This document shows, in pieces, positions 10,355 to 25,594 of a DNA stretch of 25,594 nucleotides (its first letter is position 1; the number at the start of each line of letters is the position of its first letter). This DNA is from a virus, in the IMG/VR virus record IMGVR_UViG_3300027965_000182, positions 1 to 25,594 of that record; one strand, 5' to 3'. The notes below the pieces were generated by a model. It was not told where the DNA came from. It saw only the letters and a list, made by a program, of their open reading frames with translations, and did no database searches. The position numbers and the translations under genes are program-made.

Positions 10355-10365
10355 TACCCGATCGG

Positions 10366-12016: not shown

Positions 12017-13297
12017 ATGGCTAAGTCTACCGGTTCGCACTCGTCTCGAAAAGCCCCGTCCAAACCCAAGAAGCCCTACCCCGATTTCCCGCTCACCCCC
12101 CACCCCAACGGATCTTGGGTGAAGAAGATCCGTGGCAAGATTCATTACTTCGGCAAATGGGCCGCGCGGGTCGATGGGGTTCTCACTCCTGTTCCTGGCG
12201 ATGGGTGGGAAGATGCCTTGAAGGAATACAAGGCTGTCGCTGATGACCTCCACGCGGGGCGAACCCCGCGCATCAAGGGCGATGGACTAACCGTCGCGGA
12301 CCTCTGCAACCGGTTCTTAACAGCGAAGCTCCGCAAGGTGGAAGCGGGTGAACTCACGCCGCGTCTGTTCGCGGAATACAAGGAAGTTGCCGTTTTATCC
12401 GCGAGTGAATTTGGTTCGAATCGCAGGGTGGATGACCTCGCGGCCGATGACTTCGGCGCTCTCCGTGCGGCAATGGCGAAGAAGTGGGGACCGGTGCGAC
12501 TTGGGAACGCCATCACTCGCACCAAGAGTATCTTCAAGTTTGGCTACGAGACCGGATTGATGGATCGACCCGTTCGGTACGGGCCGGAGTTCGTGAAGCC
12601 CGACAAGGCGGTTTTGCGAAAGCACCGCGCAAAGAAGCCACCGAAGATGTTCGATGCGGATGAACTCCGGGCGCTGATTGACGGCGCCCTAGTCGTCGGA
12701 GAGAGCGGGCCGGAACTGGTTCGGCCGGATGCAACCCAACGCGCGATGATCCTTCTTGGCGTGAACTGCGGGTTCGGCAACACTGACTGCGCTGAGATGA
12801 CCTTCACCGGAACCGATCTAGACGGCGGATGGATCGACTTCCCCCGGCCGAAAACCGGCATTGCCCGGCGCTGTCCACTGTGGCCGGAAACCGTTGCAGC
12901 GATCCGGGCTGCGGTCGCGAATAGACCGACGCCAGCGGACTTCTCAGAATGTGGTCGCGTCTTCCTGACGATCAACGGCAACGCATTCGTCACTCACACG
13001 CCAATCGAGAAGGCCGAAGACGGCACCCATCATGGGGGTGCACGAAAAGACCTTATCGGGATTCAGTTCCGCAAGCTGATCGATGCGCTGGGTATCCACC
13101 GCGAAGGAGTTGGCTTCTACGCACTCCGGCACGTCTTCGAAACAATCGCTGGGGAATCGAAGGATCAAGTTGCGGTTGATGTGGTGATGGGTCACACTGA
13201 TCCGTCAATGGCATCCAACTACCGTGAGCGGGTTGACGATTCACGGCTGCGGGCCGTGGTCGATCATGTCCGCGCGTGGTTGTGGCCTGTCACCTAG
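12017..13297 (+). CDS. int: Tyrosine recombinase / integrase with a non-canonical first catalytic arginine
   Basis: The 426-aa protein starts at ATG 12017 behind AGAGGTG. The N-terminal HPNGSWVKKIRGKIHYFGKW (29-48) is a planctomycete-style arm domain, and a core-binding domain follows (about 90-190). In the catalytic domain Lys279 (RPKTG), Arg371-His372 (YALRHVF), His393 (MGHTD) and Tyr402 (SNYRERV) are in place. Where other enzymes have the first Arg (TGxRxxE), this one has GFGNTDCAE with Asp257 three residues before the Glu, and the His of HxxR is Tyr368. Either another residue serves, or this is a divergent subfamily. It should mobilise the right-hand element. Confidence 0.88.
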   Translation: MAKSTGSHSSRKAPSKPKKPYPDFPLTPHPNGSWVKKIRGKIHYFGKWAARVDGVLTPVPGDGWEDALKEYKAVADDLHAGRTPRIKGDGLTVADLCNRFLTAKLRKVEAGELTPRLFAEYKEVAVLSASEFGSNRRVDDLAADDFGALRAAMAKKWGPVRLGNAITRTKSIFKFGYETGLMDRPVRYGPEFVKPDKAVLRKHRAKKPPKMFDADELRALIDGALVVGESGPELVRPDATQRAMILLGVNCGFGNTDCAEMTFTGTDLDGGWIDFPRPKTGIARRCPLWPETVAAIRAAVANRPTPADFSECGRVFLTINGNAFVTHTPIEKAEDGTHHGGARKDLIGIQFRKLIDALGIHREGVGFYALRHVFETIAGESKDQVAVDVVMGHTDPSMASNYRERVDDSRLRAVVDHVRAWLWPVT

Positions 13298-13323
13298 GTT
13301 CCCGCTCGTATTCAACTCACCCA

Positions 13324-13354
13324 GAAACAGCCCGGCATCATGCCGGGCTGTTTC
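13324..13354 (+). terminator. Strong terminator after the second integrase
   Basis: GAAACAGCCCGGC and GCCGGGCTGTTTC form a 13-bp perfect stem around ATCAT, 26 bases after the stop. GTTCTGTTTTCTTTC follows. The integrase is therefore transcribed separately from the rest of the element. Confidence 0.75.
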
Positions 13355-13410
13355 GTTCTGTTTTCTTTCATGAGTTCACAAGAGATTTGAAAGCCTGAAT
13401 TCTTTTGCGT

Positions 13411-13453
13411 CGGCGTTTTCGACAGTGGGCCAAAAAACCAAAGGAAAACGCCG
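13411..13453. repeat. Perfect 10-bp inverted repeat with a 23-base spacer
   Basis: CGGCGTTTTC at 13411-13420 and GAAAACGCCG at 13444-13453 are exact reverse complements. They lie in the control region between the integrase terminator and the HTH gene at 13543. The long spacer favours two half-sites for a dimeric protein or a looped operator over a terminator. Confidence 0.5.
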
Positions 13454-13542
13454 GATTTATTAGGAAGCGGTCACACCGAAAGAGACATAGCCACCCGACC
13501 GGAAACCCAACCAAACCAAGAGCAACGAAACTTGGAGCAACC

Positions 13543-13791
13543 GTGAAGAGCTTCACTGTCCGCGATCTTCGAGAGCGCTACGGAGTGAGCGAACCGACCA
13601 TTCTGGGTTGGATACATTCTGGCGAGTTGAGGGCGGTAAACGTCGGTGGGTCTGCAAGAACCAAAAAACCTCGCTGGCGAATCACGCAAGCGGCGTTGGA
13701 TGCCTTTGAGCAATCGCGCACCACAACACCAATTCCTCCGCGCGAGCGGCGTCAGAAACCCGCGGGTGATGTGATCCAATTCATTGTGTGA
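13543..13791 (+). CDS. Excisionase-like helix-turn-helix protein
   Basis: The 82-aa protein starts at GTG 13543 behind GGAG; the frame upstream is open but lacks a good start. Residues 4-55 form an excisionase/MerR-type HTH: FTVRDLRERYGVSEPTILGW, then IHSGELRAVNVGG, then PRWRITQAALDAF. Proteins of this kind bind beside attachment sites and switch integrases to excision, or repress early promoters. It is the first gene after the integrase. A 10-bp inverted repeat lies 90-130 bases upstream, and a terminator follows directly. Confidence 0.75.
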   Translation: MKSFTVRDLRERYGVSEPTILGWIHSGELRAVNVGGSARTKKPRWRITQAALDAFEQSRTTTPIPPRERRQKPAGDVIQFIV

Positions 13792-13798
13792 AAACGCG

Positions 13799-13826
13799 AA
13801 ACCCCTCAGCGCTAACTGAGGGGTTT
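13799..13826 (+). terminator. Terminator after the HTH gene
   Basis: AAACCCCTCAG (13799-13809) and CTGAGGGGTTT (13816-13826) form an 11-bp perfect stem with a 6-base loop, eight bases after the stop codon. The Us are within the stem and the structure is symmetrical, so it could act on both strands. Confidence 0.65.
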
Positions 13827-13906
13827 CCGGTATCGAACATCAACGCGCGACCCCAAACCGGATGCTTGGCGGCTGACGGTTGGGGAAGCAAAACACAAGG
13901 GGCTTA

Positions 13907-14185
13907 ATGCGTGCTGAAACCCTACTGACAAATTTGGCAAAAGTCAAGCCATCTGTCCCATCCTCTTCTGTTGAGATGGGCAACTCTCGGTTTCTTGTTC
14001 TGGACTCGTTCGACCTCGCGAGACTCCGCGCGGAGGTAATTCGCCTCGCGGCGGAACTTCGGCCGGGCAAGGGCGCCACCAACTTCGGGGTTACCCCAAA
14101 GTGGTATCGGGAGCGTGTCGCGTTTCTGGATTCACTCCGCGCGCGACTCGCGGCGGCGGCTGAAGCTACGGGGGTGGGTGCATGA
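13907..14185 (+). CDS. Hypothetical protein (92 aa) at the head of the replication operon
   Basis: ATG 13907 follows AAGGGG. The second half contains a helical, Arg- and Ala-rich segment (LRAEVIRLAAELRP, then YRERVAFLDSLRARLAAAAEA), and there is no membrane segment. The stop overlaps the start of the initiator gene (ATGA at 14182), so the two are coupled. It may assist replication or bind DNA, but this rests only on position. Confidence 0.6.
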   Translation: MRAETLLTNLAKVKPSVPSSSVEMGNSRFLVLDSFDLARLRAEVIRLAAELRPGKGATNFGVTPKWYRERVAFLDSLRARLAAAAEATGVGA

Positions 14186-15081
14186 ATGCCTTCACCTACC
14201 CTAAGCGGCCGAAGTGCTTTGCCTTCAAGTTCTGTCGGCTGCTCGCGAAGAAGACCGTAGCCAACGATATCGGCTCGCCCGCCTGCTGGCTGCTTACCGT
14301 TATTGCGATGACTGAAGACGCCCGCGGGTATACCGATCCTGTCACGTTCTATAACGAGCAACTTCTACCCCTCATCGGCGTTGGGTCGGTTGATGCGCTT
14401 GACCGCGTTCGTGCGAAGTGCATTGCGTCCGGCTGGCTGCAATACGAACCCGGCGCCCGTGGCCGGGCTGGGCGGTACTTTGTAACCGTCCCTTCCCATT
14501 GCAACCGAACTGATGACGCGCCAACAGATGAGGGTGAAGGGGCCGAATTGTTCCGCGAAAATGCGGAAGAAAGTGCGGATGATAGGCGACGATTCATCCG
14601 CAAAAATGCGGAAGCAACCGCGAGGAATGTGCGGAAGCAACCGCGAGGAAACCGCGGAACTCTCTTCCCTGTCCCTTCCCCTATCCCTATTGCGGGCCAT
14701 TCGCCCGCCGAACCAACCCCTGAGACGAAAGAGAAAACCAAGAAGCCGCGAAAGCGGAATCCGTTGTTCGATGTGCTTGTGATGGTCACAGGCGCTGATC
14801 CTGTTGTGAATGGATCGCACGTCGGCAGGGTTGCCGCACTGCTCTCAAAAGCCGAACGGCCATTCACTCCGGAGGAAGTTCACGACTTCGCTCATCGTTG
14901 GCGTCAACTATTGCCGTGGGCAAAGCCGAGTGAACACCCCCGGCTCACTCTGGGCATCATCGAAAAGCACATCTGCACAATCCGCGACTCACCAGAGCAA
15001 CCTAACGAAACACCGCGAGTGAAAACCGCAGCGGAAGTTCTTGCGAATCAAGACACCGACTTTGCACCAATGGGGGGCTGA
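14182..15081 (+). CDS. Phage-type replication initiator (lambda-O-like by layout)
   Basis: The 299-aa protein has an N-terminal domain (about 1-110) that looks like the winged-helix domain of phage initiators: SPACWLLTVIAMTEDARGYT, then VDALDRVRAKCIASGWLQYE, then GRYFVTVP. A charged, repetitive linker follows (about 120-160). The C-terminal domain (about 190-275, with TPEEVHDFAHRWRQLLPWAK) could contact the helicase. No family is certain; the role is inferred from layout. The gene is followed by a DnaB-type helicase, as lambda O is by P, and its middle carries an iteron array as in the lambda origin. Translation is coupled to the gene before it, and the helicase start lies five bases after the stop. 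Confidence 0.65.
   Translation: MNAFTYPKRPKCFAFKFCRLLAKKTVANDIGSPACWLLTVIAMTEDARGYTDPVTFYNEQLLPLIGVGSVDALDRVRAKCIASGWLQYEPGARGRAGRYFVTVPSHCNRTDDAPTDEGEGAELFRENAEESADDRRRFIRKNAEATARNVRKQPRGNRGTLFPVPSPIPIAGHSPAEPTPETKEKTKKPRKRNPLFDVLVMVTGADPVVNGSHVGRVAALLSKAERPFTPEEVHDFAHRWRQLLPWAKPSEHPRLTLGIIEKHICTIRDSPEQPNETPRVKTAAEVLANQDTDFAPMGG
14553..14660. repeat. ori: Iteron array, putative replication origin inside the initiator gene
   Basis: GCGGAAGCAACCGCGAGGAA occurs exactly at 14608-14627 and 14631-14650, 23 bases apart. The core GCGGAA(G/C) recurs at 14563, 14608, 14631 and 14654 (steps 45, 23, 23), with a weaker GCGAC at 14586 filling the gap. CCGC-N6-GCGG dyads start at 14553 and 14598. A period of 23 is not a multiple of three, so the two exact copies are read in different frames (AEATARN and RKQPRGN). 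Conservation is therefore at DNA level, as in initiator-binding iterons. Confidence 0.65.
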
Positions 15082-15085
15082 TCCA

Positions 15086-16417
15086 ATGGTTGCGGAACAT
15101 CCTGTTAGCGTATCGGACCTGCAAAAGGCAGCCGACACAGAACGCCACTTGCTCGCGGCGTGTTTCCGCTCGTGTGAGTACGACGGCTCCGGTCTGGACG
15201 ATGTAGCCGCGGTTGTCAGTCCAGGCGACTTCTCGGCTCTGGCTCACCAACTCGTATTCGGAGCAATGCTCGAACTCCGGGCGCGCTCGGCACCCGTCAC
15301 CGTTCACGGGGTCTTCGTTTACCTCCGCGAACGGAACCAACTGGCCGAACTCGGGTCTAACCCAGCGGTCTGGTTAGCGGACCTGTACGAAGCTGAACCA
15401 ACCGACGCCGCGGCGAGGTATTACGCGAACGTGGTCAAGGAACACTCCGGGTTCCGCGCCTTGAAGCGTGTGGCTTCTCAAATCGTGGCCGAAACCCAGC
15501 ACCCAACCGGCTCCGTCGCGGAGATCGCGGGCCGGTGCGAACGGCTCTTGCTGGACGCGACAGGCGACACGGCAACAGCCGGGCCGCGATCGGTGGCGGA
15601 ACTGATCGCGAACGAACTGGCAGACATCGACAACCGACGCGAGCGCGGGCCGGAAGGGGTGCCGACAGGGTTCCGCGAGGTGGATAGGTTGTTGAGCGGA
15701 ATGCGGCCAGGGCAACTGGTGGTGATCGGGGCGCGGCCAGCAGTTGGGAAGACGAGTTTTGCGCTCGGCATCGCAGCAAACGCGACTGCCGCGGGAACGG
15801 GAGTGCTGTTCTGCTCTCTGGAAATGACTAATGCAGAACTCACCCAGCGTTTACTATCGGCGAGTTCTGGTGTGCGTCTTCGCAATATTCGCGAATCGGA
15901 CATCAACCCAGAACAAGCGGGAAAACTGGTCGATGTTGGGGAAAGAATCGCCAAGTGGCCGTTGAAACTTGAGGACTGCCCCAACCTCACGGCTGATCGA
16001 CTCGCGGCAACCGCCCGCCGCGCGGTTCGGCGGAATGGCGTTCAACTCCTGATCGTGGATTACCTTCAACTACTCACCCCAGATAACCAACGCGAGAACA
16101 GGAACGCACAAATCGGACTCCTCGCGCGGCGGCTGAAGCTCCTCGCTCGCGAACTCTCGATTCCCGTTATCGTTCTGTGTCAACTCAACCGAGAGAGCGA
16201 GAACCGCGCCGATCCCAAACCGCGGCTCTCCGACCTGCGAGACTCGGGGGAGATCGAACAGCACGCCGACTGCGTGTTGCTTCTGTCCCCCCAACGCGGT
16301 CCTGCGGATGGTGCCCGAACCCTGATTGATTGCGGCGTCGCCAAGAACCGCAATGGGCCAACGGGAGAAGTTACCCTCGCTTTCACCGGGCCGTTGACCC
16401 GGTATGAGAACGCTTGA
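15086..16417 (+). CDS. dnaB-like: DnaB-type replicative helicase
   Basis: The protein has 443 aa, typical of the family. The N-terminal helical domain (about 12-125) begins with the DnaB-like DTERHLLAACF. The RecA-like domain carries Walker A GARPAVGKT at 215-223, SLEMTNAELTQRLL, Walker B LLIVDYLQLL near 312-321, the glutamine motif VIVLCQLNRESE and the DLRDSGEIEQHADCVLLL region. These are the hallmarks of the hexameric helicase that unwinds the fork. GGGGGG precedes ATG 15086. An element-borne helicase behind an initiator gene indicates replication independent of the host loader. Confidence 0.92.
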   Translation: MVAEHPVSVSDLQKAADTERHLLAACFRSCEYDGSGLDDVAAVVSPGDFSALAHQLVFGAMLELRARSAPVTVHGVFVYLRERNQLAELGSNPAVWLADLYEAEPTDAAARYYANVVKEHSGFRALKRVASQIVAETQHPTGSVAEIAGRCERLLLDATGDTATAGPRSVAELIANELADIDNRRERGPEGVPTGFREVDRLLSGMRPGQLVVIGARPAVGKTSFALGIAANATAAGTGVLFCSLEMTNAELTQRLLSASSGVRLRNIRESDINPEQAGKLVDVGERIAKWPLKLEDCPNLTADRLAATARRAVRRNGVQLLIVDYLQLLTPDNQRENRNAQIGLLARRLKLLARELSIPVIVLCQLNRESENRADPKPRLSDLRDSGEIEQHADCVLLLSPQRGPADGARTLIDCGVAKNRNGPTGEVTLAFTGPLTRYENA

Positions 16418-16465
16418 CCGCTCCGCGTGGTTCACTCTGCCCATCCATCACCAAGAGGCTTCCTG

Positions 16466-17011
16466 ATGATCGAAAAAAACCCGGAGAAATCCTCTGCGGT
16501 CAGCATTCCCGACGACGTGTTCGCCAAAGCCTATGACGCCGCACTTGCGATTGCCGAGAAGCGGGCAAAGGCTTGTCCGTGGCATCGTGATGAGCTAATT
16601 GATGGGGCAACCAATGCGGTGTTGTGGGCGCGTGACAACTGCAAGAATGCCGACACGTTCATTCCCTTCACAAAGGCGGCTGTTCGTCGGTGGTTGGGGC
16701 GAACGATGAGCCGGATATCGCGGAAGCACAAGACGCGCGGCGACACTGTTGCTCTCACGTTCGATGTTGCGGCGACCCGCACGCAAGCTCCCGTGCAACC
16801 GATGCTGATTGAAGACTTGCCCGAAGATTTGGCGTTCGCCGTTCGGCTCTACATGATCGATGGCTACAACCTCCGTGATTGCGGAATGCTGATGGGTTGC
16901 AGTCCGAATACGGTTGACCTGAAGTTGAAGCAAGCCGCCGAACTACTCGCGGATGGCCGTTTGAAAAAGCCTGAACGACGCAAGGGCGAAAAGCGATTAA
17001 CTGCGGGGTGA
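16466..17011 (+). CDS. Sigma-70-like transcription factor
   Basis: The protein is 181 aa. The N-terminal part (about 28-85) has the look of region 2: HRDELIDGATNAVLWARD, then FIPFTKAAVRRWLGRTM. The C-terminal part (about 120-165) is a region-4-type HTH: LPEDLAFAVRLYMIDGYNLR, then CGMLMGCSPNTVDLKLKQA. Size and domain order fit a small ECF-like sigma factor or phage late activator. ATG 16466 is preferred over GTG 16427 because AGAGG precedes it. Its stop overlaps the prohead protease start by one base, so it may govern the phage-like genes that follow. Confidence 0.65.
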   Translation: MIEKNPEKSSAVSIPDDVFAKAYDAALAIAEKRAKACPWHRDELIDGATNAVLWARDNCKNADTFIPFTKAAVRRWLGRTMSRISRKHKTRGDTVALTFDVAATRTQAPVQPMLIEDLPEDLAFAVRLYMIDGYNLRDCGMLMGCSPNTVDLKLKQAAELLADGRLKKPERRKGEKRLTAG

Positions 17012-17526
17012 TGCGAATGGAACTCATCGTCAGCGGATACGCGGCCGTGTTCCACAACCAGGGCGACGCGGGAACGGAATACGAGCTTGCGCCGGGCGTG
17101 TTCGAGCGGATCGCACCAACCGCGTTCGATCGCTGTTTGCGGGACAGGCAAGACATCACGGCGACCGTTGCCCACTCCGACCGGTTCGAACTCGGCAACG
17201 TTGCTGATGGGACTCTCCGGCTTGCGGTCGATCAACGCGGACTCGCCTTTCAACTCCTGATCCCAGAAACTCCCGTGGGTGCGCATATCTGGAAGCTGGT
17301 TCGCGCTCGTGAACTCCGGCATTGTTCGATGCGATTCGAGATTCGCGACGCGCGAGAACTCCGCGCTCACGGTTACCGGATTCTGGAACTCCTCGCTATT
17401 GATCTTGACCACATCGCGTTAACGAAGCGGCCAGCATATACCGCGACGACGGTTCGCGCAGGAAGGCTTGCCGGATTCTCGACACGACCAAACACGCAAC
17501 CGGCTATAGTGGGCGCCCGGCTGTAA
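17011..17526 (+). CDS. HK97-family prohead protease
   Basis: The 171-aa protein matches the HK97 protease fold (family U35): an initial SGYAAVF strand, ELAPGVFERIAPTAF at about 25-39, the catalytic His55 in TVAHSD followed by LGN, and the catalytic Ser106 in HCSMRFEI. DHIALTKRPAYTAT follows, like the usual LxEVSLVxxPAyxxA. The enzyme trims capsid and scaffold during head maturation. The major capsid and portal genes that usually adjoin it are absent from the window. It may act on a helper phage's capsid. A strong terminator lies 22 bases after the stop. Confidence 0.88.
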   Translation: MRMELIVSGYAAVFHNQGDAGTEYELAPGVFERIAPTAFDRCLRDRQDITATVAHSDRFELGNVADGTLRLAVDQRGLAFQLLIPETPVGAHIWKLVRARELRHCSMRFEIRDARELRAHGYRILELLAIDLDHIALTKRPAYTATTVRAGRLAGFSTRPNTQPAIVGARL

Positions 17527-17671: not shown

Positions 17672-17914
17672 ATGGTAACGAGCGACACGAATAACCGCGA
17701 GGGTGGCGAAGCGCTCGACGTTGACGGCGTTGCATCGCTACTCCGCTGCTCTGCAACGCATGTCCGCGCTCTGGTGCGAAATGGCACGTTCCCCGCACCG
17801 GCGAAGCTCGGCACTCTGGCGCGTTGGTCGCGGGCTGTTGTGCTGCGTTGGCTGGATGAAAACACCGGCGCAACCGTCAAGCGTGGCGGGCGCGAGATTC
17901 AAGTTCGGGGCTAA
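17672..17914 (+). CDS. Second excisionase-like helix-turn-helix protein
   Basis: The protein has 80 aa. Residues 14-62 fit an AlpA/excisionase HTH: ALDVDGVASLLRCSATHVRA, LVRNGTFPAP, TLARWSRAVVLRWLDE. It could be a recombination directionality factor or a regulator. The ATG has GAGGGC upstream, and the three 10-bp repeats end 15 bases before it, which suggests autoregulation. It opens the second plus-strand gene run. Confidence 0.72.
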   Translation: MVTSDTNNREGGEALDVDGVASLLRCSATHVRALVRNGTFPAPAKLGTLARWSRAVVLRWLDENTGATVKRGGREIQVRG

Positions 17915-17928: not shown

Positions 17929-18342
17929 ATGAAGCACCACGGACCGAAGCGCTACGGGCGAACCATCGGACCCATCGACCTCGAAACCGTCCGGGGGATC
18001 GACGATGCGATGGAAATTGCGATCAACTGCGGTGACCGATCGATGTTCGGACGGTTAATCGAAATCCGGCGCGCGAAAGTGGCGGCGAGCAATCCCGACC
18101 TTGCGAAAGTTGATGCGCTTCTCCGCGAGGTTTCCCAACCCGAACCGGCGCCGGGTTCCCTTCTCGCGGCTATCCAGATGGCTTCGGCGCGCTTCCGGAA
18201 AATCGCGAGCGAGTGTGACCGATCGCGGATCGCGGCGGTTCTGTCGAACACCAGCGGGCGGGCGGCACGGCCGGTGCCAGTCTGTTCGGAATGCGGCGAG
18301 CGACTTGATAGCGACGACTCTTGCGATTGGTGCGACTGGTAA
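17929..18342 (+). CDS. Hypothetical protein with a C-terminal zinc ribbon
   Basis: The 137-aa protein starts at ATG 17929 behind GGGG. Most of it is helical without recognisable motifs. The last 20 residues hold two CxxC pairs (CSEC and CDWC), a zinc ribbon. Such ribbons often stabilise small DNA- or protein-binding domains. The gene continues the run begun at 17672 (14-base spacing). No specific family is evident. Confidence 0.6.
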   Translation: MKHHGPKRYGRTIGPIDLETVRGIDDAMEIAINCGDRSMFGRLIEIRRAKVAASNPDLAKVDALLREVSQPEPAPGSLLAAIQMASARFRKIASECDRSRIAAVLSNTSGRAARPVPVCSECGERLDSDDSCDWCDW

Positions 18343-18405: not shown

Positions 18406-19242
18406 TTGACAGACAAAGCATCCGCTGATGCGGACATCAAAGCGGTTGAAAGCGTTCTCTCTGACATGAGCGATCCCGCGCAGACAAAGCCGCAACCAGC
18501 GAAGCGGCGGCCGGTACAACTGGCGAAGCAGCTTACCGATATCCGGCTTCCCGGCGATGGGGCAAGTGGCGCGCTGGTGCCTGATGAAACCGTTCCCCAA
18601 GCAGTCACTGCGCCGAAGGAGAAGGCCAGCGCGAAGCCGGTCGAGCTCCCCAATGTGACGGCGAGCACATCGGGGTTACCCAATGTGGAATTGGTTCCCC
18701 AAGTGCTTGCGGCACGGGCGAACCTGAAGCGACTCAGTGAACAGCGGGCGGCGGTTGCTGGCGAGGTGTCTTCACTCGAAAAGGAACTCGGGTTGAAGGT
18801 TGGTTCCAGTGCCGGCGAGATCGAAAAATTGGCCGTGCAACTGCTCGCGGCCGGTAAGTCAGATGAGGGGATTCAGAAACTCGAAACTCTTCGCGTGAAG
18901 CTCGGACGCCTTGTCAAAGCTGAAGCACAGGTTGTGAACGAATGCAACGCGGCTGTTGATGTCGCGAAACGCGAGTTAACCCCGCGGGCTGTGGCGGTCG
19001 GATTCACTCCCGCTGCAAAGCGCGTGGCGAAAGCGTTCTTGGAACTGATCGCGGCGCAGGATGAGGAATGGCAAGCCTCCGGCAACCTCCGTGCGGCCGG
19101 TTTCCCGCCACCACCCCCAACACTCCCACCGGGAGGTTTTTTCGACCCGGTTGCCAACCCGCTGATACTTCAGTTCGTTCGCGCTGGACTGGTCACAAGT
19201 GGCGAGGTTCTGGCTGTATGCCAGCGCATTGCCGGGCTCTGA
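18406..19242 (+). CDS. Coiled-coil phage-element protein, TTG start
   Basis: This 278-aa protein begins at TTG 18406 behind AGGG. The first 90 residues are Pro-, Ala- and Lys-rich and likely disordered. A coiled coil follows (about 100-200, with RANLKRLSEQRAAVAGEVSS). The end carries a proline run (PPPPPTLPPGG) and a small helical tail. It lies in the same operon as structural-type genes and could be a scaffold or virion-associated protein, by position only. Confidence 0.6.
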   Translation: MTDKASADADIKAVESVLSDMSDPAQTKPQPAKRRPVQLAKQLTDIRLPGDGASGALVPDETVPQAVTAPKEKASAKPVELPNVTASTSGLPNVELVPQVLAARANLKRLSEQRAAVAGEVSSLEKELGLKVGSSAGEIEKLAVQLLAAGKSDEGIQKLETLRVKLGRLVKAEAQVVNECNAAVDVAKRELTPRAVAVGFTPAAKRVAKAFLELIAAQDEEWQASGNLRAAGFPPPPPTLPPGGFFDPVANPLILQFVRAGLVTSGEVLAVCQRIAGL

Positions 19243-19303
19243 TTCGCGATTTCACAACCCGCGGCCATTCCGCGGGGCTTCCGTCTCAATCAAGGGCGCG
19301 TTC

Positions 19304-19585
19304 ATGGAACCGAGAAGCGAAGCGGATTGGGAAACTGCCGTTGTGGAACTCGGTAAGGTGGCGTTTCTCGCATGGGTTCGGTTCGTTGGTGCGATGCACA
19401 GGGCATGCAATACTGCAGGTGAAGCGGAAGAGGCCGGCGTTAAGGGCGCTATCAACTTGCTGCCTGGGTCAATGCCAGTGATTGACCCAAATGACCATAA
19501 CTTTCAGCGCAGTTTGGTGGACTATGTTCGGCGTGGCTTCATCAACGAAGAAGTAGCTGCCCGCGCGTTTCGCGGGCAGGAGTGA
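19304..19585 (+). CDS. Small hypothetical protein (93 aa)
   Basis: ATG 19304 starts a 93-aa product, though no clear Shine-Dalgarno precedes it. The sequence is helical (WETAVVELGKVAFLAWVRFV, then GAMHRACNTA) and ends VAARAFRGQE. Its end resembles the end of the 18406 product in spacing (VLAVCQRIAG against VAARAFRGQE), perhaps by chance. Position within the run is the main support. Confidence 0.45.
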   Translation: MEPRSEADWETAVVELGKVAFLAWVRFVGAMHRACNTAGEAEEAGVKGAINLLPGSMPVIDPNDHNFQRSLVDYVRRGFINEEVAARAFRGQE

Positions 19586-19606: not shown

Positions 19607-20542
19607 ATGGCCGTCCTTTCCGCAAACGTTCTGTACACCGGTCGAACCGCGACACTGACGTTTCTCCAGCGCCGCACCTACCAAGAGGTCTGGGAGGTGG
19701 TAGTTTCTTCATGGTTAGACAACGAACAGACGATTTACGCCGCGGGCGCCGTGCCCCTGCGCGGTCAATCATTCTCGCGCGATCCGCTGGCGATCGCAAC
19801 AGAATTGGAGTTCGTGCAAAGCGAGGAGAATCCGCTAATCTGGTACGTCACTGTCAAGTACGACAGTGAACCAGACTTTCCCGACTCCAAGATTGATGAC
19901 AAGGACCAAGATCCCACAGACGTTCCGGAAAATCCTCTTGAGCGTCCACCGATCTGGCGTATCTCGTTCGCGAAAGCGAATGAGGTAGTTCGACGTTGGA
20001 GGCCAGTGGATAACGCGGGAAATCTTTCGGCGAATTTTATTGCAATCCGCAACTCGGCAAAACTCCCATTCGACCCACCCGCGATGGCGGACTACTCGCG
20101 GCCGGTACTCCGCGTCACGAAGAACGTCCCCTCTGTGACCTTCGAATACCTCTTGGTGTTACAGGATGCAGTCAATGAAAAAAAGTGGCGTGGGTTGCTG
20201 CCGCGGCAAGCGCGCGTTGATGGTGTTGAGTCAGGCAACAAGTTTGAGAACGGCGTTGCGTACGTGGAACTCACCATTGACATCATGCTGAAGCGCGAGA
20301 CGTGGGACTTGCGATTGCTTGACCAGGGCGACGCGGAACTGGTTCAAACAGGTACTACCCCAACCAATCCTCCGGTTCCGATTTTCGAATGGCGGAAGTC
20401 TCGTGACGCATTGGGGAATTTCGGACCGTTTCCCCTGGATGGCAAGGGGAGGAAGCTCGATCCAAAGGCCGACCCTGTATTCCTACGCGGTCTTCCTGAA
20501 CACTACCACTTGCAGGACTTCAACGCGATCATGCCATTCTAG
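19607..20542 (+). CDS. Unknown protein of the structural-type run (311 aa)
   Basis: ATG 19607 follows CGGGAG. The 311-aa product is mostly beta-like, with many short alternating stretches (VTLTI-type patterns such as WYVTVKYDSEP and VAYVELTIDIML). It has an Asp-rich middle (SKIDDKDQDPTD) and no signal peptide. The pattern resembles phage baseplate or neck proteins. A gene for a tail-fibre-like protein follows after ten bases, so a virion component is possible. No named family is assigned. Confidence 0.65.
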   Translation: MAVLSANVLYTGRTATLTFLQRRTYQEVWEVVVSSWLDNEQTIYAAGAVPLRGQSFSRDPLAIATELEFVQSEENPLIWYVTVKYDSEPDFPDSKIDDKDQDPTDVPENPLERPPIWRISFAKANEVVRRWRPVDNAGNLSANFIAIRNSAKLPFDPPAMADYSRPVLRVTKNVPSVTFEYLLVLQDAVNEKKWRGLLPRQARVDGVESGNKFENGVAYVELTIDIMLKRETWDLRLLDQGDAELVQTGTTPTNPPVPIFEWRKSRDALGNFGPFPLDGKGRKLDPKADPVFLRGLPEHYHLQDFNAIMPF

Positions 20543-20552: not shown

Positions 20553-21902
20553 GTGGCTGAGTGGGTGCTATCAGATTCCGTCGCGTCAGAATTGATGACG
20601 CTCATTCGCACGCGGCGCGGCGGATTTGGTCTGTCTGGACCGGGTAGCGGGGGCTATCACGTTGCGTTCGTCCGGTGTGATTCGGCGACCGCGACGGGCA
20701 GCGATTCCGTAACTTCTCAATGCTACCCCGCAACGGTGCTGGCCGTTGCCGCTGATGATCCTCTTCCCCCAGAAACTTACACGAGTTCCGGAGTCTTGCT
20801 TTCGCTTCTGGGAGACTCCGGAACCGCAGCAGTTCCTACCGTTGGCGCGATCTACTTGGCAGTTCTCACAGGTGATGTTGCCAGCGATAGTCAGGGATCG
20901 GTAGTTGCAGGGCGTCCGCGGGCATTTGCTGCGGCGCCTGTTACCTCTGGTTCGTCGGTTACTGGAACGGGGACGGATAAGCACGCCGTCAGGTGGAATG
21001 GAACGGGCGTCTCAGTTATCCAAAACAGCGCCGTAACGATTGATGACAGTGGAGACATAACAACGCCCGGCTACGTGTCCGCGGCCACATCGTTCGACGT
21101 TGGAAGTGGATCGCTTTATTCATTCGGGATCGGTGGAACCAACATACTCAACATCCAGCATTCCGCTGGTAGTGGGCATGCCATCTACGTCAGCAAATCC
21201 GGGGGTGATGGGCTGATTTATGTGGATGGTGGAGGTATCACGGTCGATCCGTACGGCGGCGGTTCGCCGAGTGGCAATAGTGGAACCATCAAGCTCCGCG
21301 GGAACGGTGGCGCAGACGAAGTTGGGTTCATTGCACAAACATCTATTGGAATTCCCGTCTCAGAACGGTCGGGGCTTTATTTCACTGCGGGCGGAACGTC
21401 AGTTTTCTGTCAGTCTATCACGTCTTCCGAAACGGGTGGAATATCGGGTGGCGGTCTAGCAATCAGCAGTGCTGTGTATCCTGAATCCGGATATTTGACA
21501 ACGGACAACACGGGAACGTTCTTCCTCGGAGTGGGCGCGGGAACTGGCTACTCAACTAATCTTGGTCCGGATGCTCGTTTTGCCAACGGGCTGCTCATTA
21601 GCGCTGGAACCGGATCGATACCGGGGACAGCCAGCACCAACACGTTCACTGCGCTCCAAACATTCCAAACAACGACATCCCCGGCGATCGTCGCACAGCA
21701 AACCGCGAGCAATTCGAGCAATACTGTTGCCGTCAAAAATTCGGGCGGGACAGTTACCGCGGCAATTACCGGAAACGGGGACATCACAGCCAATTCCTAC
21801 ACAGGTAATGGCAGTGGGCTAACCAATCTCAACGCAAGTAACCTCGCGACCGGCACGGTTCCAAGCTCCCGTATCGGCACCGTGGACGGCGGAACGTGGT
21901 AG
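20553..21902 (+). CDS. Tail-fibre-like repetitive protein
   Basis: The 449-aa product (GTG start behind AGGGGGTG) is rich in Gly, Ser, Thr and Asn with beta-repeat character. Its C-terminus carries the widespread phage tail pattern GNGSGLTNLNASNLATGTVP. Residues 150-430 form a stalk-like repeat region with VTIDDSGDITTPGY, GITVDPYGGG and TFTALQTFQTTTSP. Such proteins form trimeric receptor-binding fibres. It stops at a TAG (21900-21902). The next ORF lies in the same frame, so the two may form one fibre if the stop is read through. Confidence 0.75.
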   Translation: MAEWVLSDSVASELMTLIRTRRGGFGLSGPGSGGYHVAFVRCDSATATGSDSVTSQCYPATVLAVAADDPLPPETYTSSGVLLSLLGDSGTAAVPTVGAIYLAVLTGDVASDSQGSVVAGRPRAFAAAPVTSGSSVTGTGTDKHAVRWNGTGVSVIQNSAVTIDDSGDITTPGYVSAATSFDVGSGSLYSFGIGGTNILNIQHSAGSGHAIYVSKSGGDGLIYVDGGGITVDPYGGGSPSGNSGTIKLRGNGGADEVGFIAQTSIGIPVSERSGLYFTAGGTSVFCQSITSSETGGISGGGLAISSAVYPESGYLTTDNTGTFFLGVGAGTGYSTNLGPDARFANGLLISAGTGSIPGTASTNTFTALQTFQTTTSPAIVAQQTASNSSNTVAVKNSGGTVTAAITGNGDITANSYTGNGSGLTNLNASNLATGTVPSSRIGTVDGGTW

Positions 21903-22241
21903 GTGATTCATGGCGAATCCGCCTATTACCCCTCGCATGGAAACCCCGTTCCGGTCAGTGTTGCCGCGGCGGGTTCTGGGCAATCAACGGCCGCGCTGCT
22001 CACGAACGGCGTCTTGAATCTGGTCACCGGAGCGGACGGTACCAAGGGTGTGCAACTGCCTGTTGCCGCGGCGGGTGATGTCTGTCGTGTGTATAGCGCG
22101 ACAGCAACCAACGCCGTTCCGGTCTACGCGCAGACGGGCGGTCAAATCAACAGTGGAACCGCCAACGCCGCGTTCTCGTGTTCGGCTCAGACACCGTACC
22201 TTTTCGAGTGCATCGACGGTACGAGTTGGATCGCGAAGTAA
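21903..22241 (+). CDS. Small beta-rich phage structural domain following an in-frame TAG
   Basis: This 112-aa frame begins at a GTG immediately after the TAG of the fibre gene and is in frame with it. It includes TAALLTNGVLNLVTGADGT, GVQLPVAAAGDVCRVY and INSGTANAAFSC, a pattern known from small phage virion proteins and fibre domains. The ribosome site AGGTGA suits ATG 21910 in the next frame instead, which gives MANPPITPRM but closes after 35 codons. A frame change would rejoin VPVSV. The start is therefore uncertain. Confidence 0.55.
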   Translation: MIHGESAYYPSHGNPVPVSVAAAGSGQSTAALLTNGVLNLVTGADGTKGVQLPVAAAGDVCRVYSATATNAVPVYAQTGGQINSGTANAAFSCSAQTPYLFECIDGTSWIAK

Positions 22242-22366
22242 GCCGGCGCGTACCGGGTAGGCGGTCAGATTTTGACGGAATGGGCCGGAAGACCGTGTGC
22301 CCCGTGCGCAAAAAACTAAAACTGGTTTCGATAACTTTTTCCCCCACACCTGGGGCGGATGGCCGG

Positions 22367-22891
22367 ATGGGGCAGAGGGGACCAAAGCCGGGACAATTCA
22401 AGATGCGGCCAGTGCCAGCGGGTTCATCGTTGGCGAAGTCGAGCGGGCCGCGTTACGCGACCGGTGAACCAGACATGCCGAAGCATCTCGGCAAAGCGGC
22501 GCGTGCCGTGTGGAAGCGTACCGTTCGCGAGATGACCGCGGCCGGAACGCTCACACTTGTTGATCGCGATATTCTCGCGGCGTACTGCGTCGCGGTCGGA
22601 GACCTCGAAACGCTTTCCCGTGATATTGACGCCGATGGGCTGATGGTTGACGTGCCAACCGTGGACCGCAACGGCCGTCCCACTGGCGCGACCCTCCGCA
22701 AGCCGCATCCGGGGTTGAAGTGGCGGTCTGACCTGCTGAACAAGGTGAGGCAACTGGCGGCAGAGTTAGGATTGACCCCCGCGGCGCGTTCGCGGGCTGG
22801 GACGGTGGCCGAAGCTCCAAACGCAACACCAAACAAGGTACTGGCGATTCGCGACCGCATCCAAGCGGCACGGTCTGCGACGCCAGCGTAA
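22367..22891 (+). CDS. terS: Phage small terminase subunit, P27 family
   Basis: The start MGQRGPKPGQFK is the usual opening of P27-type small terminases (MGxRGPKP). A conserved core follows: PDMPKHLGKAARAVWKRTVR, LTLVDRDILAAYCVAVGDLE, then LMVDVPTVDRNGRPTGATLR with HPGLKWRSDLLNKVRQLAAE. These proteins recognise the packaging site and hand DNA to the large terminase. No large terminase follows, and the next gene is unrelated. A lone small terminase is what phage satellites use to divert a helper's packaging. The frame is open back to 22178, but the family's usual start fits 22367. The ribosome site is weak. Confidence 0.85.
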   Translation: MGQRGPKPGQFKMRPVPAGSSLAKSSGPRYATGEPDMPKHLGKAARAVWKRTVREMTAAGTLTLVDRDILAAYCVAVGDLETLSRDIDADGLMVDVPTVDRNGRPTGATLRKPHPGLKWRSDLLNKVRQLAAELGLTPAARSRAGTVAEAPNATPNKVLAIRDRIQAARSATPA

Positions 22892-22933: not shown

Positions 22934-23206
22934 ATGACAGTAGACAAGTTCGCCCAGCACGCAGCAACCCCGGACGGTGTTCCGGTCCGGTCGGTGGTTT
23001 TGGACGTCTCAACTGGAGATCATGAGTTGTCCGAGGTGTGCACGGTTTTCTGGTGCAGTACACCCGGCGACTTGATAGCACGCCTGAAGGACGATAAGGA
23101 AGACCGGCGGTTTGTTGTCATGGCTGGCCAGCAATACCGCGGCCGGTTCGCAGTGGTTCGGAAGAGCGGGACGACCGCGGCGGGGCTGTTCCTGTATCCA
23201 GCATGA
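22934..23206 (+). CDS. Small hypothetical protein (90 aa)
   Basis: ATG 22934 is preceded by a GGGG stretch at 22925-22929. The product starts MTVDKFAQHAATPDGVPVRS and has alternating beta-like strands with VCTVFWCST and RFVVMAGQQYRGRFAVV. It follows the small terminase gene on the same strand. There is no recognised domain. Its stop overlaps a further short ORF. Confidence 0.55.
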   Translation: MTVDKFAQHAATPDGVPVRSVVLDVSTGDHELSEVCTVFWCSTPGDLIARLKDDKEDRRFVVMAGQQYRGRFAVVRKSGTTAAGLFLYPA

Positions 23207-23397: not shown

Positions 23398-24234
23398 TCA
23401 CCGTTCCGCATCTACGATGTGCACGCGGAGTTGGCGATTCAGGAGAGCTTCGCACTTCTTCTCATCCGCAAACACGGTTGGTCGCCAGTGGAAAATGAAC
23501 TGCATGGCCTTCCTTGGTTCCATCGAATCGTATGACGTGACGCCCACAATCCGGCAGTATACTTCAATACGGAAAACGCCCTCCCGATCTTTATCAGGGT
23601 AGAATTCTGCTTGCGCTAGCGCCATCTGATCCAGCAGCAGTGAGTCCAAAAAGATTACTGCGTGTTGCTGAGGAAGTAATTTACCGAATGAGGCGTTCTC
23701 GGCAGAACTAGGTTCAGAGAGGGTGATTGGGTGGGGTTCAATTTGCTTCACCCCAAATCCATAGGCGCGACCACGGATGTAGGTAACATCGGCTCTCAGC
23801 GCGTCGATTATCTCTTCGCCAGTATTCTTGATCGAAACCCGCGGCCCCCAGCGAAGCATATCATCAACGGAGTCCAGACGGAGTATGTCTTTGTCGGTCC
23901 CCACTTCTTTTTTCGTTAACAGCTTTTCCAGAGCCGGATCGGTGGTTTTCATTTGGACGAAGGCGAAATGTGCCCGGATCTTGCCGGAGGCGCGATCTTG
24001 CGCGAATTGATTCAGAGCGGCTTGGCGATCTGAGACACGATACGACAGACACGATACCACTAATGCCAAAACGGCGATGAAAGCAGTTAATTTTGTCCAC
24101 TTTGAAACTGGGGCGGGCGGGTTCTTATCACTCGACGTCGGCGGACTGGATGGTGGTTGAGTTGCGGAACTCGGCGTTGGTGGTGTTTGTGATGGAGGAG
24201 GTGCCGCAGGCTTTGATTTTTTCTTGTTGTTCAT
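23398..24234 (-). CDS. Membrane-anchored cargo protein with a Pro-rich N-terminus
   Basis: The 278-aa protein has a Lys-rich start, then a Pro/Ser/Thr-rich stretch (about 8-43). One membrane helix follows (about 47-66, with LTAFIAVLALVVSCLSY), and then a long soluble domain with charged helices and beta strands. It is transcribed against the preceding genes, and its base composition is less GC-rich. Such opposed genes near an element end are usually cargo. No defence or toxin motif is recognised. AGAGG lies upstream of the start, and a 20-bp tandem repeat lies 47-86 bases upstream. Confidence 0.65.
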   Translation of the reverse strand: MNNKKKSKPAAPPPSQTPPTPSSATQPPSSPPTSSDKNPPAPVSKWTKLTAFIAVLALVVSCLSYRVSDRQAALNQFAQDRASGKIRAHFAFVQMKTTDPALEKLLTKKEVGTDKDILRLDSVDDMLRWGPRVSIKNTGEEIIDALRADVTYIRGRAYGFGVKQIEPHPITLSEPSSAENASFGKLLPQQHAVIFLDSLLLDQMALAQAEFYPDKDREGVFRIEVYCRIVGVTSYDSMEPRKAMQFIFHWRPTVFADEKKCEALLNRQLRVHIVDAER

Positions 24235-24280
24235 TTGGGCCTCTAATTCCTATTCGCTCGCGCACCAACGGAATTTTTTG

Positions 24281-24320
24281 GGAGAAATTGACCCAAGACG
24301 GGAGAAATTGACCCAAGACG
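24281..24320. repeat. Exact tandem duplication of a 20-bp unit
   Basis: GGAGAAATTGACCCAAGACG occurs at 24281-24300 and again at 24301-24320 without a mismatch or spacer. It lies between the ends of two minus-strand genes, in the upstream region of the 23398-24234 gene. A period of 20 is nearly two helical turns. It may be a doubled operator or a recent slippage event. Confidence 0.7.
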
Positions 24321-24392
24321 ATTTTCGCACGCGATTCAACCTTCACACAATCTTGGTTGCAACCGAGACCGCCATCCGAGATGCGCTCACCT

Positions 24393-24602: not shown

Positions 24603-24608
24603 GGTAAA

Positions 24609-24633
24609 CCCTCTGGCGTGAATGCTCAGAGGG
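24609..24633 (-). promoter_or_regulatory. Hairpin covering the ribosome-binding site of the 24393-24602 gene
   Basis: CCCTCTG (24609-24615) and CAGAGGG (24627-24633) are exact complements with an 11-base loop. On the minus strand the AGAGGG arm is the Shine-Dalgarno of the next gene. It could sequester the site or act as a weak terminator behind the HTH gene. Confidence 0.4.
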
Positions 24634-24651
24634 GTATTTCGCGCGCTCCGT

Positions 24652-24912
24652 TCACTTCTTTCCGGCTTTCTTCGGCTTCCCCTTCTTCGGATCTGATTTC
24701 TCTTTCGCTGGCCTGCCGCGGGCCGGTGGCGTGAAGGCTTTCACGTCTTCCTCGCGAAGCAAGAACTTTGCCGATCGACCCGACCCAACGACGACCACGG
24801 GGAGCAACCCAGCGTTAATCCAGTTCTGAACCGTCTTCGGCGCCAATCCCTTCTCGGCGCACACGTCCGCGACGGTCATAAGCCCGAACTCAGAAAGCGG
24901 AATCTCGCGCAT
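24652..24912 (-). CDS. MerR/excisionase-like HTH protein with a Lys-rich tail
   Basis: Translation most likely starts at 24912, because AGGAGA lies directly upstream; a start at 24948 is also open. The 86-aa product has an HTH at about 8-55 (FGLMTVADVCAEKGLAPKTV, then QNWINAGLLPVVVVGSG) and a Lys/Pro-rich end. It is probably a DNA-binding regulator of the right end. It is divergent from the 25056 gene across a promoter region. Confidence 0.7.
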   Translation of the reverse strand: MREIPLSEFGLMTVADVCAEKGLAPKTVQNWINAGLLPVVVVGSGRSAKFLLREEDVKAFTPPARGRPAKEKSDPKKGKPKKAGKK

Positions 24913-24982
24913 TTCTTTCTCCTCTGTTCTCCATGATTCTAGGTGCATGGCGTCCCGGACGCAAATTACTTCGGGAACCCTC

Positions 24983-25012
24983 TTGAATAATCTGGCTCCC
25001 CGGACGTATATA
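24983..25012 (+). promoter_or_regulatory. Sigma-70-type promoter for the zinc-ribbon gene
   Basis: TTGAAT (24983-24988) and TATATA (25007-25012) are separated by 18 bases. CCCGGACG occurs at 24954 and again at 24999 within this divergent region and may be an operator pair. Confidence 0.5.
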
Positions 25013-25055
25013 AATGTGTCGCGACTGACGCGGCGGAAATCAAACCGGAGTGAAC

Positions 25056-25259
25056 ATGAACGCCATCTGCATCAAGTGTTGGGACGCAAGCGCGCTGGTC
25101 TGCATGGACCTCGACGGATCGCGGGAGTTCCGCTGTACTGGGTGCGAGGAGACGTTCACTTGTGAGGAAGTTCGGCAAACGCTGGACGCGATGAAACGGG
25201 GCTGGGAACGGCTGATTGGATGGGCTGAAAGCTACCCGGTGGAAGAGGCGAAGGTGTGA
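25056..25259 (+). CDS. Small zinc-ribbon protein (67 aa)
   Basis: The ATG at 25056 lies behind CCGGAG (GTG 25050 is possible). CIKC and CTGC, 21 residues apart, form a zinc ribbon in the first half. A helical, charged second half with LDAMKRGWERLIGWAE follows. It may be a small nucleic-acid-binding or adaptor protein. A promoter lies 44-73 bases upstream and a terminator follows. Confidence 0.6.
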   Translation: MNAICIKCWDASALVCMDLDGSREFRCTGCEETFTCEEVRQTLDAMKRGWERLIGWAESYPVEEAKV

Positions 25260-25287
25260 CCGTGTGATTGCGACGGGCAGAACGCAA

Positions 25288-25308
25288 GAGGGGGCTTTCG
25301 CCCCCTTC
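25288..25308. terminator. Bidirectional terminator between convergent genes
   Basis: GGGGGC (25290-25295) and GCCCCC (25300-25305) pair around TTTC. TTCTTC follows on the plus strand and Ts follow less clearly on the minus strand. It sits between the ends of the 25056 (+) and 25310 (-) genes. Confidence 0.65.
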
Positions 25309-25309
25309 T

Positions 25310-25594
25310 TCACTTCTTCGGCTTCTTCTTTGGCTTGTCCGCTGGCGTCGGCTGTTGCTCTGGCGGGGCCGGTTCGTCGGGAACGTCGAACTCCGCGATA
25401 GACACCCCCAGCGCCTTAGCCAGAGCGCGAACCGTGTTCCACGTTGGATCGGTTTCTCCGCGCTCCAACTTCGCGACAGTGGCAAGGCTGACGTTCGCGG
25501 CGCGCGCAAGTGCTTCCTGTGTCATCCCCGCATTCGCGCGAAGCTCCTTCAGGCGGACACCGAAACCGCTTGACATCCGCACGACCTCTGGCAT
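25310..25594 (-). CDS. XRE/Cro-type transcriptional regulator
   Basis: This 94-aa product has a full helix-turn-helix of the XRE family: GVRLKELRANAGMTQEALAR, then AANVSLATVAKLERGETDP, then WNTVRALAKALGVS. A short Pro/Lys-rich tail follows. Such regulators commonly keep mobile elements quiet. The first codon coincides with the window end, so the ribosome site is not visible; Met at 25576 is an alternative. It may be the master repressor of the right-hand element or belong to the flanking host DNA. Confidence 0.8.
   Translation of the reverse strand: MPEVVRMSSGFGVRLKELRANAGMTQEALARAANVSLATVAKLERGETDPTWNTVRALAKALGVSIAEFDVPDEPAPPEQQPTPADKPKKKPKK

What the first reader, a model, noticed from the sequence alone, without database searches (positions are those of the whole stretch)
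12017..25594. Candidate planctomycete phage satellite: own replication, prohead protease and small terminase but no packaging motor or capsid
The element encodes an integrase, excisionase-like proteins, an initiator with an iteron-type origin, a DnaB helicase, a sigma-like factor, an HK97 prohead protease and a P27 small terminase. A normal siphophage module (small terminase, large terminase, portal, protease, capsid) is not present. The protease and terminase are about 5 kb apart, separated by other genes and a strong terminator. Known phage-inducible islands in Firmicutes and Proteobacteria carry a lone small terminase or capsid-modifying genes and use a helper phage. I know of no such element described for planctomycetes, but cannot check. 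The portal and large terminase could lie beyond 25594.
Basis: partly seen in the sequence, partly recalled or inferred. Interest (0 to 1): 0.8.

Follow-up and report, generated by a model that had tools for sequence, protein, structure and literature searches.

The report
Planctomycete phage-satellite island, new type
This is probably a small genetic parasite of bacterial viruses living in planctomycete bacteria: it brings its own DNA-copying genes and a few virus-assembly parts but seems to need a helper virus for the rest, and complete relatives of it sit in other planctomycete genomes.

Summary
The gene list is real: tyrosine integrase, HTH_17 protein, winged-helix initiator, DnaB, weak sigma-like protein, S78 prohead protease, P27 small terminase. 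No large terminase or portal, and no capsid beyond the protease's partial matches, was found in 11850-25594. The "strong terminator" is unsupported. Bases 1-11700 are a different, conjugation-type element. The right attachment site lies outside the window, so the window alone cannot exclude a longer prophage. Relatives help: in one planctomycete family the same integrase family inserts into the 5' half of tRNA genes. Of 22 regions examined (some chosen for nearby head genes), 8 are closed by exact 34-48 bp repeats (9.8-16.8 kb); all 8 carry a terminase or head gene, one weakly; none matches a portal family. The closest, in G504, has P27, coiled coils and S78, and its empty site is intact in four congeners. 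I read the element as a phage satellite that replicates itself, marks its DNA with its own small terminase and modifies helper heads, perhaps tails; helper use and transfer are inferred. New variant of a known kind; my searches found no planctomycete satellite described.

The parts
11761..11849 (-). tRNA-Ser(CGA); its 5' half (about 11807-11849) is the inferred left attachment core
   Evidence: ARAGORN and Rfam; att rule from 8 closed relatives. Single copy in the window.
12017..13297 (+). tyrosine integrase
   Evidence: phrog_1 5e-25; relatives in 64 of 170 genomes of one planctomycete family
13405..13791 (+). HTH_17 excisionase-like protein
   Evidence: PF12728 38.2 bits; homologues lie after the integrase in several relatives
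13880..14185 (+). 101-aa unknown protein
   Evidence: no PHROG match
14182..15081 (+). replication initiator-like protein with N-terminal winged helix
   Evidence: relatives in 22 of 170 genomes; AlphaFold2 model; weak Rep/initiator matches in Foldseek
14561..14652 (+). iteron-like direct repeats, candidate origin
   Evidence: suggestive only
15041..16417 (+). DnaB-type replicative helicase
   Evidence: phrog_19 1.9e-81
16427..17011 (+). weak sigma-70 region 4-like protein
   Evidence: PF08281 23.3 bits, below cut-off
17008..17526 (+). S78 prohead protease with the His and Ser of the active site (roles recalled)
   Evidence: PF04586 91 bits; His56 and Ser107 invariant in all 6 proteins of the alignment, window included
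17672..17914 (+). second HTH_17-type protein
   Evidence: phrog_66 9e-9
17929..18342 (+). 137-aa unknown protein
   Evidence: no PHROG match
18406..19242 (+). 278-aa protein with a helix-rich part; scaffold-like by position only
   Evidence: no family match above cut-off, no homologue found
19199..19585 (+). 128-aa unknown protein
   Evidence: no match
19607..20542 (+). tail-type virion protein (family of the gene right after the tape measure in prophages)
   Evidence: homologues in prophages L210 and L213 and in L214 after the tape-measure position; 19 viral fold matches at E<=1e-3
20553..21902 (+). low-complexity, possibly fibre-like protein
   Evidence: 33-residue match to a phage protein at E 1e-3 only
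21903..22241 (+). 112-aa unknown protein
   Evidence: no match
22178..22891 (+). P27 small terminase subunit; likely start 22367
   Evidence: PF05119 76 bits, phrog_83 1e-27; the best-listed phage match begins at residue 64
22934..23206 (+). 90-aa unknown protein where a large terminase would be expected
   Evidence: no match
23398..24234 (-). unknown protein, cargo or part of a neighbouring element
   Evidence: no match above cut-off
24652..24948 (-). third HTH_17-type protein
   Evidence: phrog_66 1.3e-7
25310..25594 (-). Cro/CI-type repressor-like protein; the record is cut at its start codon
   Evidence: phrog_5823 1.2e-16

Best explanation
A phage satellite (integrative, helper-dependent island) of a planctomycete. 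Shown: its integrase gene lies against the 5' end of tRNA-Ser, and relatives with this integrase family are precisely inserted into the 5' half of tRNA genes. Inferred steps: a helper phage relieves repression; integrase plus HTH_17 protein excise a circle; the winged-helix initiator loads the element's own DnaB on repeats inside its gene; the P27 small terminase marks the satellite DNA and hands it to the helper's large terminase and portal; the S78 protease, with helix-rich partner proteins, alters helper head assembly or maturation (for example head size); the tail-type and fibre-like proteins may change the tail tip. Likelihood: satellite as a whole about two in three; own small terminase redirecting packaging about 0.6; protease remodelling heads about 0.45; tail change about 0.3.
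For: No TerL or portal match in the visible part. Of 22 integrase regions, 19 have an antisense tRNA just upstream and 8 are closed by a second exact copy of the tRNA 5' half, 34-48 bp, sizes 9.8, 10.5, 10.9, 11.0, 11.2, 12.2, 16.7 and 16.8 kb. All 8 carry a packaging or head gene: P27+S78 (L143, L173), TerL (L174, L184, L188, L190), protease-capsid fusion (L183), weak TerS (L187, 1.9e-4). Caveat: L143, L173, L188 and L190 were fetched because such a gene lay near; L174, L183, L184 and L187 were not. Apart from integrases and one antisense frame, the frames of 330 aa or more in the 8 were scanned and none matched a portal. L173: P27, coiled coils and an S78 36% identical to the window's. Empty site: in 4 congeners an intact tRNA-Ser with one att copy lies about 190 bases from the riboflavin synthase gene; in G504 the 16.7-kb element parts them. 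S78 His and Ser invariant in 6 of 6. G504 and G437, 2 of the 4 genomes with P27+S78 islands, also hold P27-TerL-portal-S78-capsid prophages.
Against: The window ends before its right att site, so missing genes could lie beyond 25594. A 41%-identical integrase sits in L182, which has TerL and portal, and the maps of L176, L177, L180 and L186, also with this integrase, show no terminase or head gene by eye (not scanned), so the integrase does not by itself mean satellite. Five large ORFs in the closed islands match nothing (486, 444 and 333 aa in L143, 462 in L173, 487 in L188), so a divergent portal is not excluded. The genome search missed the P27 of L173 and the S78 of L143 that direct scans found, so its negatives are soft. 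G453 and G439 show no PF04860 portal, so no helper was seen there. Satellite S78 proteins have long branches and the tree is mostly unresolved. The window's 278-aa protein is not demonstrably related to the coiled coils of relatives. No induction, excision or transfer data.
Confidence: 0.65

Rival explanations
1. A complete temperate phage whose head and tail module lies beyond 25594; the window shows only its early half.
For: Right att not in the window. L182 has an integrase of this family, a DnaB, an HTH_17 relative and then TerL and portal.
Against: In prophages L210 and L213 TerL follows the small terminase directly, then portal, S78, capsid, tape-measure position, the 311-aa type protein and a long tail protein. 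Here S78 and the 311-aa protein come before P27, and P27 is followed by a 90-aa ORF and then opposite-strand genes. The two closed P27+S78 relatives are 16.7-16.8 kb; at that size about 3 kb would be unseen.
Confidence: 0.17
2. A decayed prophage or mosaic of unrelated remnants that happens to keep P27 and S78.
For: Satellite S78 proteins are divergent; G437:C72 has an S78 match with a stop codon; 31 of 52 P27 places lack TerL or portal within 10 kb, some because a contig ends.
Against: The main ORFs are open, His and Ser kept in 6 of 6, the P27+S78+coiled-coil choice recurs in L173, L143, L117 and L124, and L173 is a precise insertion with empty sites in congeners. One L117 S78 and the L143 S78 form a supported clade (96/90).
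Confidence: 0.12
3. An integrative element that moves by some other route (conjugative mobilisation) and carries phage genes as weapons, for example to poison helper packaging and protect the host.
For: A conjugation-type element lies next to it. Satellites may interfere with phages (passages of PMC10803314).
Against: No relaxase among the right-half ORFs given to Pfam (12 of them). The closed relatives carry packaging or head genes, 8 of 8, four of them picked without knowing.
Confidence: 0.06

Closest known systems
PICI (phage-inducible chromosomal islands)
   Same: Integrase, regulator, own replication module, own small terminase in some (passages of PMC6092414 and PMC10690885), similar size
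   Different: Here a prohead protease and a tail-type gene are carried; other phylum; attachment core in the tRNA 5' half; induction by phage unknown
Capsid-forming PICI (cf-PICI)
   Same: Carries head genes of its own with integrase and replication genes
   Different: cf-PICIs carry capsid, protease, portal, connectors and both terminase subunits (passage of PMC10690885); here only protease and small terminase are visible
SaPIbov5 and PmCI172
   Same: Satellites carrying a single capsid-protein homologue linked to small heads (passage of PMC6092414); parallels the P27+capsid islands found in passing
   Different: The window's element carries a protease, not a capsid protein
Island in G504 (L173, 16.7 kb)
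   Same: Same integrase family, HTH_17 relative, P27, S78 (36% identical), tRNA-Ser 5'-half attachment
   Different: Primase-helicase instead of initiator plus DnaB; no relative of the window's 311-aa tail-type protein found in it

Membership tests
PICI | integrase, replication module and regulator | tested here: met
   criteria from passages of PMC6092414; the 'master regulator' is only a candidate (HTH3 at 25310)
PICI | absence of phage structural genes | tested here: not met
   S78 protease and a tail-type protein are present
PICI | attachment site never used by prophages | tested here: inconclusive
   tRNA 5'-half sites used by 8 islands; one integrase relative lies in a prophage-like region without an adjacent tRNA (L182)
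PICI | size around 12-15 kb | tested here: inconclusive
   at least 13.7 kb, right end not seen; relatives 9.8-16.8 kb
PICI | phage-dependent induction and packaging | not testable with these tools
   needs cultures and a helper
cf-PICI | own capsid, portal, connectors, protease, TerL and TerS | tested here: not met
   only protease and TerS found in the visible 13.7 kb; right end not seen
HK97/P27-type prophage | TerS, TerL, portal, S78, capsid in a row | tested here: not met
   order S78 ... tail-type ... TerS with no TerL or portal; compare L210, L213
phage satellite in general | integrative element with att repeats and own excision and replication, lacking a full virion gene set | tested here: inconclusive
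   met in relatives L173 and L143 as far as scanned; in the window one att half only
phage satellite in general | transfer in helper particles | not testable with these tools
   no particle data
P4-like and PLE | their marker genes (recalled: sid, psu, alpha; tcaP) | not tested
   no dedicated models were run; none named in the PHROGs and Pfam answers for the window

The most novel reading that the evidence does not exclude
Planctomycetes hold a large satellite superfamily built on one tRNA-5'-half integrase family, in which each lineage carries a different small subset of virion genes (small terminase + maturation protease + coiled coil; TerL alone or with a DUF2213 protease; protease-capsid fusion; perhaps tail parts) and so takes over a different step of helper assembly. 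The window's element would be the protease/small-terminase type, possibly also retargeting the tail.
Probability: 0.35. Interest if true: 0.8.

Novelty: new variant of a known kind. Interest (0 to 1): 0.62.

Why it matters
The passages I saw place known satellites in enterobacteria, vibrios, pasteurellas, bacilli, lactobacilli and streptococci (PMC10803314) and in marine and soil bacteria including Cyanobacteria and Actinobacteria (PMC11389934). A widespread set in Planctomycetota, with integration into the 5' half of tRNA genes and modular picks of virion genes, would show that satellites arise with many partial gene sets and would give test cases for what a lone prohead protease does in a hijacked capsid. 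Two searches found no paper joining phage satellites with planctomycetes (an open-access library only).

Tried and rejected
Single-protein scans of viral contigs with the terminase, protease, DnaB and initiator domain found no relatives. Exact search of the 88-nt tRNA in genome contigs found nothing. The initiator has no relative in the phage or plasmid collections. Distance of S78 and P27 as evidence by itself was rejected: prophage modules also show about 3.5-8.7 kb between them. The idea that the 311-aa protein is a capsid or portal was rejected after its homologues turned out to follow the tape measure. Lone P27 counts (31 of 52) were not used as a satellite count because contig ends split some modules; 6 of the 28 loci checked there were closed by tRNA repeats of 43 bp or more. 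Helper co-residence (2 of 4 genomes) was not treated as a statistic. The S78 tree was too poorly resolved to date the satellite lineage. Correction made on checking: the novel case went from 0.40 to 0.35 and the main reading from 0.66 to 0.65, because half of the eight closed islands had been picked for a nearby head gene and four other integrase regions show none.
Full report
WHAT THE WINDOW IS. The record is an IMG/VR virus record of 25594 bases whose two ends coincide with start codons of ORFs, as expected of a provirus trimmed at gene borders (inference). It holds two different elements back to back around one tRNA-Ser(CGA), 11761-11849, minus strand. The left one (1-11700) has a ParB-like protein, a type IV coupling protein (PF02534, 213 bits) and a tyrosine integrase on the 3' side of the tRNA; its coupling protein is closest, among plasmids, to that of Singulisphaera acidiphila pSINAC03 (34% identity). 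The right one is the finding.

THE OBSERVATION. Integrase, HTH_17, DnaB, S78 protease and P27 small terminase are confirmed by PHROGs and Pfam. The initiator has no family match, but 22 of 170 genomes of one planctomycete family hold relatives, and its N-terminal 110 residues are predicted as a winged helix (pLDDT mostly above 90; overall pTM only 0.43); Foldseek lists MarR-type proteins first, with Rep and initiator entries among weak matches, none at E<=0.001. The sigma factor is weak, the iterons suggestive, and the strong terminator unsupported. None of the 19 right-half ORFs given to PHROGs matches TerL or portal; the S78 protein also matches two 'major head protein' families over its protease part, and the HTH_17 protein at 24652 a small-terminase family weakly (2.8e-4), neither of which I count. 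No unassigned frame of 320 aa or more exists to the right of 11850 except the fibre-like one.

FINDING RELATIVES. Phage and plasmid collections gave only distant homologues (best about 34-40% identity) and none of the initiator. Through the coupling protein I reached the Singulisphaera genome and from it a sample of its phylum, Planctomycetota by the taxonomy line: 4 of 392 genomes hold the initiator, the best being G217, whose family (170 genomes, names withheld) became the study set. The window's own host is thus a planctomycete by inference only.

THE INTEGRASE FAMILY AND ITS SITE. Relatives of the window's integrase (E<=1e-20) occur in 64 of 170 genomes. I examined 22 regions with such an integrase, 20 fetched for this purpose and 2 fetched earlier (L117, L143). 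They were not a random draw: some were taken for high identity or a long contig, others because a terminase, S78 or capsid hit lay near, and several are cut short by contig ends. In 19 of 22 a tRNA lies antisense just upstream, as in the window. In 8 of 22 a second exact copy of the tRNA 5' half, from anticodon loop to 5' end, 34-48 bp, closes the element: L143 16.8, L173 16.7, L174 10.9, L183 11.0, L184 10.5, L187 9.8, L188 11.2, L190 12.2 kb. In the window the tRNA-Ser 5' half occurs once and no similar 20-mer lies to the right, so the right end is beyond 25594.

CONTENT OF CLOSED RELATIVES. L173 (G504): integrase, primase, P27 (phrog_83 1.5e-13; PF05119 29.8 bits), coiled-coil proteins, S78 (phrog_80 1.8e-32), then cargo; of 10 further ORFs scanned none matched TerL, portal, capsid or tail families. 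L143 (G453): integrase, HTH_17, primase, P27, S78, coiled coil. L174, L184, L188 and L190 carry TerL; L184 also a DUF2213 protease; L183 a protease-capsid fusion; L187 only a weak TerS match. No PF04860 portal or PF05065 capsid hit lies in any of the 8, and of the frames of 330 aa or more inside them all but integrases and one antisense frame were scanned without a portal match. Five such ORFs match nothing at all (three in L143, one each in L173 and L188). Four of the 8 (L143, L173, L188, L190) were fetched because a head or packaging gene was near; the other four were not. Other integrase regions (L176, L177, L180, L186) show no terminase or head gene by eye, and L182 looks like a full prophage, so the integrase family is shared by several kinds of element. 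Two truncated relatives add to the P27+S78 type: L117 (G437:C72: integrase, HTH_17, initiator, P27, two PF04586 stretches and a third S78 by homology to that of L143, two coiled coils; contig start) and L124 (G439:C464: another integrase, S78, coiled coil, P27; contig end). One coiled coil of L117 and that of L143 are homologous (32%, 3e-18). The His and Ser that I take for the S78 active site (recalled from HK97 protease) are invariant in all 6 aligned proteins. The S78 tree is largely unresolved, with mostly long satellite branches and one supported satellite clade, L117 with L143.

EMPTY SITE. In G504 the 16.7-kb element lies between a riboflavin synthase gene and tRNA-Ser. All 15 genomes of the genus match the query somewhere. 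I checked six congeners by their fetched loci (2.3-3.5 kb): in G515, G516, G511 and G513 the synthase gene and an intact tRNA-Ser with one att copy lie about 190 bases apart with no integrase between; in G514 and G518 no tRNA lay in the locus. The other eight congeners were not checked. The closest closed relative is therefore a precise insertion.

TAIL-TYPE GENE. A two-row profile of the 311-aa protein (19607-20542) matches in 11 of 170 genomes, one of them its own second row, several weakly; the window protein alone finds L210 (2e-6) and a few others, not L213 or L214. In prophages L210 and L213 (P27, TerL, portal, S78, capsid) and in L214 the homologue follows the long gene at the tape-measure position (a tape measure by PHROGs in L210) and precedes larger tail-type genes. 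The predicted fold is all-beta (mean pLDDT 77), with 19 uncharacterised or unnamed viral proteins at E<=1e-3 and no solved structure at that level. The next protein is fibre-like only by a 33-residue match.

MECHANISM. Shown: gene content, att rule and empty site in relatives, kept His and Ser, presence of P27-TerL-portal-S78-capsid prophages in G504 and G437. Inferred: helper-triggered excision, own replication, P27 redirecting helper TerL, S78 with helix-rich partners altering head assembly, tail change. The precedent of a satellite small terminase redirecting packaging is in a passage of PMC10690885.

AGAINST. The window's right end is open; integrase relatives occur in a prophage-like region and in islands without visible phage genes; five large ORFs of closed islands are unidentified; the genome search missed two genes that direct scans found, so its negatives are soft; G453 and G439 show no PF04860 portal; no experiment exists. 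Hence 0.65.

KNOWN SYSTEMS AND NOVELTY. PICI criteria (PMC6092414, passages) fail on 'no structural genes'; cf-PICI criteria fail on capsid, portal and TerL. It works like a satellite but is filed under no named family. A search for 'phage satellite' with 'planctomycet' and a five-term search with 'satellite' and 'Planctomycetota' returned no paper; the library is open-access only. Four papers were seen as passages (PMC10690885, PMC11389934, PMC10803314, PMC6092414), all others as listings, none read whole.

Noticed in passing
window 1-11700: A separate conjugation-type element (ParB-like, type IV coupling protein, HTH_17, integrase) on the 3' side of the same tRNA-Ser, included in the IMG/VR provirus record.
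   Followed up: partly
L118, L119, L120, L122 (and L121, with a serine recombinase): Islands of 9.2-9.9 kb, four of them closed by 44-45 bp tRNA repeats, carrying integrase, primase-type protein, P27 small terminase and an HK97 capsid with no PF03354 TerL or PF04860 portal hit: a capsid-carrying satellite candidate type.
   Followed up: partly
L125, 6413-16234: A second 9.8-kb island of the same genome as L120 (G412), closed by a 47-bp tRNA-Arg repeat, with P27 and a primase-like protein but no PF05065 capsid hit.
   Followed up: partly
L174, L184, L188, L190: Islands with the window's integrase family that carry a large terminase (plus a DUF2213 protease in L184) but no PF04860 portal or PF05065 capsid hit.
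   Followed up: partly
L217, L218, L220: A portal (PF04860) and capsid (PF05065), with TerL, protease and tail-like genes by appearance, interleaved with host genes such as an asnS-like gene and a transporter; same order and 77-85% identity for TerL, portal and capsid in two other genomes, and portal-capsid pairs about 7.3-7.4 kb apart in several more: looks like a domesticated gene-transfer-agent-like cluster.
   Followed up: partly
L136, 7560-10245: Apparently only an integrase and a P27 small terminase between host-like genes, about 3 kb: a minimal element or remnant.
   Followed up: no
L194 and L145: S78 protease next to a tape-measure-like protein (in L145 phrog_8462, 2e-24; in L194 by appearance only), with no PF04860 portal hit on those contigs: possible tail-length change by a satellite.
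   Followed up: no
L122, 2798-8188: A second element with integrase, primase-like and P27-like proteins (by appearance) lies next to the capsid-carrying island: possible tandem satellites.
   Followed up: no
L193, 9745-10503: Another lone S78 protease in G504 beside repeated small proteins.
   Followed up: no
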